Shown here piece by piece: positions 11,751 to 13,849 of a stretch of DNA of 64,000 bases; the stretch's first letter is position 1; every line of letters starts with the position of its first letter. A program made the translations under genes and the position numbers. Location: assembly GCF_038432375.1 (NCBI RefSeq), contig NZ_JBCAUS010000007.1, positions 186,001-250,000 of the forward strand. Reading direction: 5' to 3'. Source of the DNA: Methanococcoides sp. LMO-2 (GTDB lineage: Archaea > Halobacteriota > Methanosarcinia > Methanosarcinales > Methanosarcinaceae). Under the pieces are notes generated by a model. It searched no databases. It was not told the origin of the DNA and saw only the letters and a program-made list of their open reading frames with translations.

Positions 11751-12521
11751 ATGACCGAACAGAAACTGATCGTAGAAGAAATATCCCTGATTCATGAGGA
11801 AATTTCCGGGCTTCGTAGTGAGCTGAACCGTTTCAGGGGGGAAGTTGCAGGTAGCCAGACCAATTCATTGCTCTATGAGTTCAGGAACCAGTGTGCTGTG
11901 GAGATGGTCAATGGATCCCTGGAGAATGCCTATGAACTCATCGGGAACGAGAAGAAGGAATGTCCTATGCAGACAAAATGTATTCCGCATTTAGTTCATT
12001 TTTTTGAAGAGCTGGCAGACTATACCAAAAATGACCAAATCACCGGGGAAAATATTGAAAAGATGCGCCAGGGTTTTGAAAAATTAAGAGAAATGGCACC
12101 ATACGACCATTGTTCCAACTGTATACAAAAGGCTGAAGGATACTTCGATCAGCAGGTGGGAATGTTACAGACAATAGGAGTCTACCAGAACGAGAGCAAC
12201 ATGCAATTGCAGGTTCAGAACCTCCATGAAGATAAGGTTGCCAACCTGATAGGGGACCCTCTGAGCAGTTCAGTGCGTATCCGTATCCTGAAGGCACTGT
12301 ATGAGGAAGGAAAGACTTTTACCGAACTCTCAAAGCTCACAGAGCTCCGCGGTGGGAACCTCCTCTTCCATCTGGAAAAACTCCAGAACAAAGGAATGAT
12401 AAGGCAGCGTGGTGAAAGAGGTGAATACCAGATCAGTTTACAGGGTTATGAAGCCCTCAATGCCATGGCTGAACTTGTGGAGAAATTAGGTGTGAACTAC
12501 AGCAAGACAGGATCTATCTGA
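11751..12521 (+). CDS. ArsR-type winged-helix regulator with Cys-containing sensor region
   Basis: 256 residues from ATG 11751. An N-terminal coiled coil (about 1-35) leads to a middle region with several Cys (ECPMQTKC about residue 70 and CSNC about 120), then a C-terminal winged helix (about 165-240: SSSVRIRILKALYEEG, then GGNLLFHLEKLQNKGMIRQR). Family members of this layout are common in Methanosarcinales. The Cys pairs suggest metal or redox sensing, which is inference. The neighbour on the other strand is the flavin-binding-type protein at 11219. Confidence 0.75.
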   Translation: MTEQKLIVEEISLIHEEISGLRSELNRFRGEVAGSQTNSLLYEFRNQCAVEMVNGSLENAYELIGNEKKECPMQTKCIPHLVHFFEELADYTKNDQITGENIEKMRQGFEKLREMAPYDHCSNCIQKAEGYFDQQVGMLQTIGVYQNESNMQLQVQNLHEDKVANLIGDPLSSSVRIRILKALYEEGKTFTELSKLTELRGGNLLFHLEKLQNKGMIRQRGERGEYQISLQGYEALNAMAELVEKLGVNYSKTGSI

Positions 12522-12782
12522 CCTCCTAACCGCAGAAGCCATTTTGAGTCAGGGCAGATATTGCAAGTCGAAAATAAATATGGAAAGGAATTGGAAGATC
12601 ATAGCATATTTCCAGAGGAGATCTATTGGAAATGCGTAAAACCACATCTTTTAAAACTATTTTTAATTAGATGTTTATTTTTGATTTTTGAGAATATCGG
12701 GCACATAAGACATCATAAATGATAGCAATTTTAAATAAAACAATAAATATACATGTAAAGATTAGTATGCTATTTTTATTAA
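12522..12782. other. Non-coding AT-rich stretch
   Basis: Between the regulator's stop and the promoter of the 34-residue gene I see no open frame with expression signals. The segment around 12650-12700 is T-rich on the plus strand and could end the regulator's transcript. Confidence 0.4.
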
Positions 12783-12822
12783 TGGTCATATATAAATACC
12801 AGTATGACCAATTTTTAATTGG
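12783..12822 (+). promoter_or_regulatory. TATA box embedded in two inverted repeats (operator-like)
   Basis: TGGTCATA (12783-12790) and TATGACCA (12803-12810) form a perfect 8-bp inverted repeat around a strong TATA box (CATATATAAAT, 12787-12797). A second repeat, CCAATT-TTT-AATTGG (12808-12822), overlaps its right arm and covers the expected transcription start near 12820. A protein bound here would block TBP or RNA polymerase, so repressor control of the small gene at 12844 is likely. Confidence 0.55.
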
Positions 12823-12843
12823 GAATAAAGGAAGGTGGTACGT

Positions 12844-12948
12844 ATGAGACTTAGTTCAAACTTCAGGTTGGAACTCTCGAGCTCACCTTGGGGAACGATC
12901 TCAATTTCCTTTGTCGAGATCGATGAGGATCCTGAAAAGCCCCCCTAA
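12844..12948 (+). CDS. 34-residue peptide gene with strong expression signals
   Basis: ATG 12844 to TAA 12948 encodes MRLSSNFRLELSSSPWGTIS followed by ISFVEIDEDPEKPP. A strong ribosome binding site (AGGTGG, 5 bases before ATG) and a strong TATA box with operator-like repeats precede it. The peptide is Ser-rich in the middle with one Trp and has an acidic, Pro-ending tail. I recognise no family. It could be a modified-peptide precursor, a small regulator or a structural peptide; no obvious modifying enzyme is adjacent. Confidence 0.5.
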   Translation: MRLSSNFRLELSSSPWGTISISFVEIDEDPEKPP

Positions 12949-13164: not shown

Positions 13165-13192
13165 ATCCATTCAGGAGAATCCCTGAATGGAT
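13165..13192 (-). terminator. Hairpin terminator of the small-gene operon
   Basis: ATCCATTCAGG (13165-13175) and its perfect complement (13182-13192) form an 11-bp stem with a 6-base loop. On the minus strand a T-rich run (TATATTTGTCTTTTTC) follows it, 36 bases beyond the stop of the gene at 13229. Confidence 0.65.
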
Positions 13193-13228: not shown

Positions 13229-13372
13229 TCAGGAGTCATCCTGCATGTCCATATCTATTTTTAACAGGTTACTGCTATCAATTCTGCCATCTGCACCAAT
13301 GCTGATGGAAAATGCAATTGCAGAAGATTCTTCTGCGCTGGGCTGTACATAGAGTAAAGTTCTGTTATCCAT
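13229..13372 (-). CDS. 47-residue small protein, unknown
   Basis: ATG 13372 to TGA 13229, with GAGGT 7 bases upstream. The protein starts MDNRTLLYVQPSAEE, then has a hydrophobic strand-like stretch SSAIAFSISIGADGRIDSS and an acidic end (DMDMQDDS). It follows the 13407-13620 gene by 34 bases, so both are probably one transcript, closed by the hairpin at 13165. No family recognised. Confidence 0.55.
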   Translation of the reverse strand: MDNRTLLYVQPSAEESSAIAFSISIGADGRIDSSNLLKIDMDMQDDS

Positions 13373-13406: not shown

Positions 13407-13620
13407 TTAAGCTGCTTTTCCGGGATCAGTTATGACGGTTATACCCATGCCCGGAATAGATACGATAAAGGCGCCTTCTTTTGATGGTACCGTCATCGTT
13501 CACTATCGAAGAAAAAACGACTGCAGGGTCTATACCAACCTGTGGTTTGTATAAGACCATGTTACTCAAAAGATATCCGTACTTATATGCATCTACTATA
13601 TTCTCAGTTGTATCTGCCAT
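13407..13620 (-). pseudogene. 70-residue small protein gene with a one-base frameshift
   Basis: As it stands, ATG 13620 gives 64 residues ending at 13426. After NDDGTI the frame turns into an Arg/Tyr/His-rich tail. Removing one A from the run just after this point gives KEGAFIVSIPGMGITVITDP and then GKAA, stop at 13407, which looks far more like protein. The N-terminal part is MADTTENIVDAYKYGYLLSN and then MVLYKPQVGIDPAVVFSSIV. So the gene is frameshifted, by mutation, by a sequencing error or by a programmed slip. Family unknown. A TATA-like box (about 13767-13778) precedes it, and a 22-residue open frame (13666-13734) lies between. Confidence 0.5.
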
Positions 13621-13849
13621 ATTCTTCAGTCCCCAAATATTTACACATTATATTCTTTAACCGGGTCAATGCATGCCAGCAGAATGGAGACCGTTGTTGA
13701 GAACCCCCACGAGGACCCAATCTGCAACCCCCATACACAGACCTTGTTACTATGTTGGCATTTTGAGTATAAATAATATTGCATCTGGATAATTAGTATT
13801 ATCTTTGAAACTAACTAAGTGGTTTAGTAATAACAAAAAACTTCAACAC

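What the first reader, a model, noticed from the sequence alone, without database searches (positions are those of the whole stretch)
12783..12948. 34-residue gene under a tightly built promoter-operator
A strong TATA box inside a perfect 8-bp inverted repeat, a second repeat over the start site and a strong ribosome binding site all serve a peptide of 34 residues. This is a large regulatory investment for a peptide and suggests a signalling, toxin-like or modified peptide.
Basis: partly seen in the sequence, partly recalled or inferred. Interest (0 to 1): 0.6.

Follow-up and report, generated by a model that had tools for sequence, protein, structure and literature searches.

The report
Conserved 34-residue microprotein gene in methanogens
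The tiny gene is real and has been kept by natural selection in nearly every sampled Methanococcoides methane-making archaeon, next to two other tiny genes; its promoter is ordinary, the "operator" repeats are no more than chance would give, and nothing points to a toxin, signal or modified peptide.

Summary
The letters described are all present: the 8-bp inverted repeat around a TATA box (12783-12810), a 6-bp repeat over the predicted start site (12808-12822), a Shine-Dalgarno (12832-12839) and a 34-codon ORF (12844-12948). The ORF is a genuine gene. It occurs in 10 of 11 genomes of its genus (Methanococcoides) at the same place, under purifying selection (pN/pS 0.17 and 0.31 in the two clades), with 18 invariant residues. 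It was found in no other genus. The promoter-operator claim fails. A repeat of that size arises in 22% of shuffles, is perfect only in this genome (3-6 of 8 pairs elsewhere), shows no covariation, and marks no other promoter in the genome. What is conserved is the core promoter, start region and ribosome site. The peptide is soluble, acidic and predicted to be an amphipathic beta-hairpin, with no signal sequence, membrane span or maturation genes beside it. It lies tail-to-tail with two small, mutually related genes (13229-13372, 13426-13620), present in the same 10 genomes and absent from the same one. Best reading: a genus-specific intracellular microprotein that docks on a partner protein, comparable in kind to MtrR of Methanosarcina. 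The partner is unknown.

The parts
12844..12948 (+). pep1: 34-aa microprotein MRLSSNFRLELSSSPWGTISISFVEIDEDPEKPP
   Evidence: Found in 10 of 11 genus genomes at the same locus; 18 invariant residues; pN/pS 0.17 and 0.31 in the two clades, shifted frames >0.5; predicted beta-hairpin, pLDDT 77
12788..12798 (+). TATA box ATATATAAATA
   Evidence: ATATATAA invariant in 10 genomes
12783..12810 (.). IR1, 8-bp inverted repeat with 12-bp spacer around the TATA box (arms 12783-12790, 12803-12810)
   Evidence: Present; chance level (22% of shuffles); not conserved and no covariation
12808..12822 (.). IR2, 6-bp inverted repeat with 3-bp spacer over the predicted start site (12815-12818); shares CCA with IR1
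   Evidence: Present; perfect in 6 genomes, 4-5 of 6 in the other 4; one clade-level double change; start site inferred from the 19-22 nt box-to-start distance in Methanolobus (PMC5378194)
12832..12839 (+). Shine-Dalgarno AAGGTGGT
   Evidence: GGTGG kept in all ten genomes
13165..13192 (.). 12-pair hairpin ATCCATTCAGG...CCTGAATGGAT, likely shared terminator of the convergent genes
   Evidence: perfect 11-12 bp in six genomes
13229..13372 (-). pep2: 47-aa small protein, convergent with pep1, second gene of a likely operon
   Evidence: Present in the same 10 genomes; pN/pS 0.22 and 0.40; related to pep3
13426..13620 (-). pep3: 64-aa basic small protein ending YRIYSGHGYNRxN
   Evidence: Same 10 genomes plus Methanosarcinaceae genera g8 and g13; pN/pS 0.19 and 0.14
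11751..12521 (+). Upstream wHTH (ArsR-type C-terminal domain) regulator; neighbour, probably not the cognate repressor
   Evidence: Pfam HTH_20/HTH_5; truncated in G004 (M. vulcani) and absent at this place in G009 (M. seepicolus) while pep1 stays

Best explanation
A genuine, Methanococcoides-specific gene for a soluble intracellular microprotein of 33-34 residues, transcribed from an ordinary archaeal TATA promoter with a leader of about 26-29 nt and a Shine-Dalgarno, and ending near a hairpin shared with a convergent pair of small-protein genes. Shown: conservation of frame, promoter core and position; co-occurrence with the pair. Inferred: the peptide folds as an amphipathic beta-hairpin (strands 6-13 and 19-26, with F7, L9, L11, W16, I19, I21, F23 on one side) whose exposed apolar face binds a partner protein and modulates it. 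The partner could be one of the two neighbouring small proteins or a larger enzyme, as MtrR binds Mtr in Methanosarcina. The inverted repeats are mostly incidental.
For: Presence in 10 of 11 genus genomes at a syntenic locus; no convincing hit elsewhere in its order (186 genomes), a four-locus, genus-only result in the genome-contig scan, and none in viral contigs. pN/pS 0.17 and 0.31 in frame, higher in shifted frames. ATATATAA, start region and Shine-Dalgarno conserved across both clades while flanking DNA is not. IR1 at chance and without covariation. The only other perfect copy of the repeat core in the genome lies between convergent genes as a terminator-like hairpin. Hairpin model pLDDT 77; pI 4.4, GRAVY -0.44, no membrane span. 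pep1, pep2 and pep3 present or absent together in the genus. MtrR precedent: 49 aa, Methanosarcina only, no membrane span, binds MtrA (PMC13370731).
Against: No transcript or peptide data were available. pLDDT 77 and pTM 0.33 for a 34-residue chain from 9 similar sequences is modest. pep2/pep3 occur without pep1 in other genera, so pep1 cannot be obligatory for them; profile comparison finds no homology of pep1 to either. Co-occurrence rests on one shared absence (G003), so it is weak.
Confidence: 0.7

Rival explanations
1. The repeats are a true operator: a dimeric repressor straddles the TATA box (IR1) and the start site (IR2) and shuts pep1 off.
For: IR1 half-sites are 20 bp apart centre to centre, two DNA turns; 5-6 of 8 pairs kept in the near clade; IR2 kept with one compensatory clade-level change.
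Against: IR1 at chance in shuffles, no covariation, 3 of 8 pairs in two species; no second promoter site in the genome; the adjacent wHTH is lost or truncated in two species that keep pep1.
Confidence: 0.15
2. Toxin, secreted signal or modified (RiPP) peptide.
For: Small size; a strong ribosome site; clustering with other small genes.
Against: Acidic, hydrophilic, no signal sequence, membrane span or Cys (and the sequence itself); no maturation enzyme or dedicated exporter in the syntenic neighbourhood gatCAB-PNPOx-wHTH-pep-EamA-hcp; nothing in PADLOC, PHROGs, Pfam or NCBIfam; fixed vertical synteny, not mobile.
Confidence: 0.05
3. Dual-function or non-coding RNA of about 375 nt (predicted start site to hairpin 13192) in which the ORF is secondary.
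For: Long 3' stretch before the first clear hairpin; dual-function sRNAs are known in M. mazei (PMC11456600).
Against: Constraint follows codon positions; the 3' stretch is not conserved; no Rfam family.
Confidence: 0.08
4. Chance ORF.
For: 34 codons is short.
Against: Conservation with pN/pS 0.17 and a codon-sized indel between clades that keeps the frame.
Confidence: 0.02

Closest known systems
MtrR of Methanosarcina mazei (49 aa; PMC13370731)
   Same: Soluble small protein without membrane span, restricted to one Methanosarcinaceae genus
   Different: Function shown for MtrR (binds MtrA, H2 response); none known for pep1; the MtrR sequence was not compared here
MtrI of Methanosarcina mazei (68 aa; PMC12774963)
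   Same: Stand-alone small gene of the Methanosarcinales
   Different: MtrI is helical and broader in range; pep1 is predicted beta and genus-only; sequences were not aligned here
Unannotated sORFs of M. mazei found by Ribo-seq (PMC11456600)
   Same: Class of short, often genus-restricted translated ORFs
   Different: No pep1 relative found in Methanosarcinaceae outside Methanococcoides; no translation data for pep1

Membership tests
Repressor-controlled promoter with TATA operator | Dyad symmetry above chance | tested here: not met
   22% of shuffles contain such a repeat
Repressor-controlled promoter with TATA operator | Dyad kept in orthologous promoters | tested here: not met
   IR1 3-6 of 8 pairs elsewhere, no covariation; IR2 alone inconclusive
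Repressor-controlled promoter with TATA operator | Binding by a regulator | not testable with these tools
   Needs footprinting or pull-down
RiPP precursor | Maturation enzyme encoded nearby | tested here: not met
   Syntenic neighbours are gatCAB, PNPOx, wHTH, pep2, pep3, EamA, hcp; in G009 PNPOx and wHTH are missing there and pep1 stays; enzymes elsewhere in the genome were not searched
Type I toxin-like small membrane peptide | Hydrophobic membrane-spanning segment | tested here: not met
   GRAVY -0.44, charge -3.5, beta-hairpin model
Translated small ORF (microprotein) | Purifying selection on the reading frame | tested here: met
   pN/pS 0.17 and 0.31
Translated small ORF (microprotein) | Ribosome footprint or detected peptide | not testable with these tools
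   No Ribo-seq or proteome data at hand

The most novel reading that the evidence does not exclude
pep1 with the convergent pep3-pep2 pair forms a new three-component module of small beta-rich proteins (acidic pep1 and pep2, basic pep3) that assembles and regulates a process special to Methanococcoides, with pep1 as a later genus-specific addition to an older pair.
Probability: 0.15. Interest if true: 0.55.

Novelty: new member of a known kind. Interest (0 to 1): 0.3.

Why it matters
It adds a well-supported microprotein gene, matched by no Pfam or NCBIfam model, and two related small-protein families to a genus of methylotrophic methanogens in which small proteins appear little studied. In the related genus Methanosarcina such proteins have turned out to tune methanogenesis enzymes. 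It also shows that eye-catching promoter repeats in AT-rich archaeal intergenic DNA need a chance and conservation test.

Tried and rejected
Shared operator elsewhere in the genome: the only other perfect GGTCAT-N14-ATGACC lies between convergent genes followed by T-rich DNA, terminator-like. Shared motif in the pep3 promoter: none seen. Adjacent wHTH as the repressor: lost or truncated in two species. Homology of pep1 to pep2 or pep3: none by profile comparison. A 35-aa ORF on the + strand at 13669-13776: pN/pS 0.74, not supported as coding. A frameshift first suspected in pep3: relatives end in the same frame, so none. Phage or viral relatives: none. PDB by sequence: only chance-level hits. 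Rfam: nothing credible. AlphaFold of pep3: too poor to interpret (pLDDT 53). Fold search not run: a lone hairpin matches anything.

Full report
Observation. The arms of IR1 are 12783-12790 and 12803-12810 with a 12-bp spacer holding most of the TATA box; IR2 is 12808-12813 and 12817-12822 and shares CCA with IR1. The Shine-Dalgarno is AAGGTGGT (12832-12839) and the ORF runs 12844-12948. A dinucleotide-shuffle test of the intergenic region 12522-12843 gave one or more perfect repeats (arms of 8 or more, loop 20 or less) in 22% of shuffles, so IR1 is not remarkable.

The gene is real. A search of 100 relatives found the peptide in nine of ten other genomes of the genus. A scan of named genome contigs gave four loci, all Methanococcoides: M. 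vulcani, M. seepicolus, M. alaskense and an unnamed species. The two clades differ by a one-codon indel and share 61-65% identity with the window's peptide, with 18 invariant residues overall. Pooled pN/pS is 0.17 in one clade and 0.31 in the other; shifted frames give higher values. A profile search of the order (186 genomes) found no convincing member outside the genus, and viral contigs gave none. The one genus member without it, G003, also lacks pep2 and pep3 and has other genes beside its EamA homologue.

The promoter. Alignment of the ten upstream regions shows an invariant ATATATAA, a conserved start region and a conserved GGTGG. In Methanolobus psychrophilus the promoter elements lie about 19-22 nt from the start (PMC5378194), which puts the start here at about 12815-12818, inside IR2, with a leader of 26-29 nt; this is inference. 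IR1 is perfect only in this genome; pair counts show 72.2% of cells paired against 71.8% in shuffles. IR2 does better (98.1% against 94.3%), but G-U counts as a pair there, which has no meaning for a DNA operator, and the compensatory change is a single clade-level event. A genome search for the IR1 core found one other perfect site, conserved in one relative, lying between convergent genes before T-rich DNA: a terminator-like hairpin, not a promoter. The upstream wHTH gene is reduced to its C-terminal part in G004 and missing at this place in G009, yet pep1 is intact in both. The operator reading therefore has little support, although a weak role for IR2 cannot be excluded.

The neighbours. 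Convergent with pep1, and separated from it by a hairpin (13165-13192), lie two small genes on the minus strand: pep3 (64 aa, basic, ending YRIYSGHGYNRxN) and pep2 (47 aa, acidic). Both are under purifying selection, both are present in the same ten genomes, and they are related to each other (profile comparison E 1.7e-6, probability 90). A 47-aa form of pep3 occurs in a second genus, g8 (my guess from genome size: Methanohalophilus), and the pep3-pep2 pair in genus g13. It was not found with confidence in other genera of the class (238 genomes) or in a sample of the phylum. None of the three matches Pfam or NCBIfam (one sub-threshold chance hit for pep3), PADLOC, PHROGs or PDB sequences.

Mechanism. 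pep1 is soluble-looking and acidic (pI 4.4) and is predicted as a beta-hairpin, strands 6-13 and 19-26, pLDDT 77. The alternation of F7, L9, L11 and I19, I21, F23 around W16, kept as apolar in both clades, gives one apolar face that a free 34-mer cannot bury, hence the inference that it docks on a partner or self-associates. MtrR of Methanosarcina (49 aa, genus-restricted, without membrane span, binding MtrA; PMC13370731) is a precedent in kind, not a homologue: its sequence was not compared. Nothing supports secretion, toxicity or modification.

Verdict. A real, well-conserved microprotein gene with an ordinary promoter. The operator is not supported, and the function is inferred only at the level of a protein-binding hairpin.

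Noticed in passing
window 13426-13620 and 13229-13372: Pair of related, unnamed small genes (pep3, pep2); the pep3 family ends YSGHGYNR and occurs as a 47-aa form in genus g8, and as the pair in g13 before an Xaa-Pro peptidase-like gene.
   Followed up: partly
L020 (G004, M. vulcani) and L025 (G009, M. seepicolus): The PNPOx and wHTH genes between gatC and pep1 are missing (L025) or reduced to the wHTH C-terminal part (L020), while pep1-pep3 stay.
   Followed up: partly
window 13621-13780, minus strand: About 150 bp upstream of pep3 is well conserved in the near clade, possibly a long structured leader.
   Followed up: no
L099 1988-2013 and L100 2005-2030: GGTCATAG...CTATGACC hairpin between convergent genes, conserved in two genomes; terminator-like, resembling IR1 probably by chance.
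   Followed up: yes
window 13669-13776: 35-aa plus-strand ORF open in six genomes but with pN/pS 0.74: probably not coding.
   Followed up: yes
L078 (G003): The one genus member lacking all three small genes has sensor-kinase-like and other genes around its EamA homologue.
   Followed up: partly
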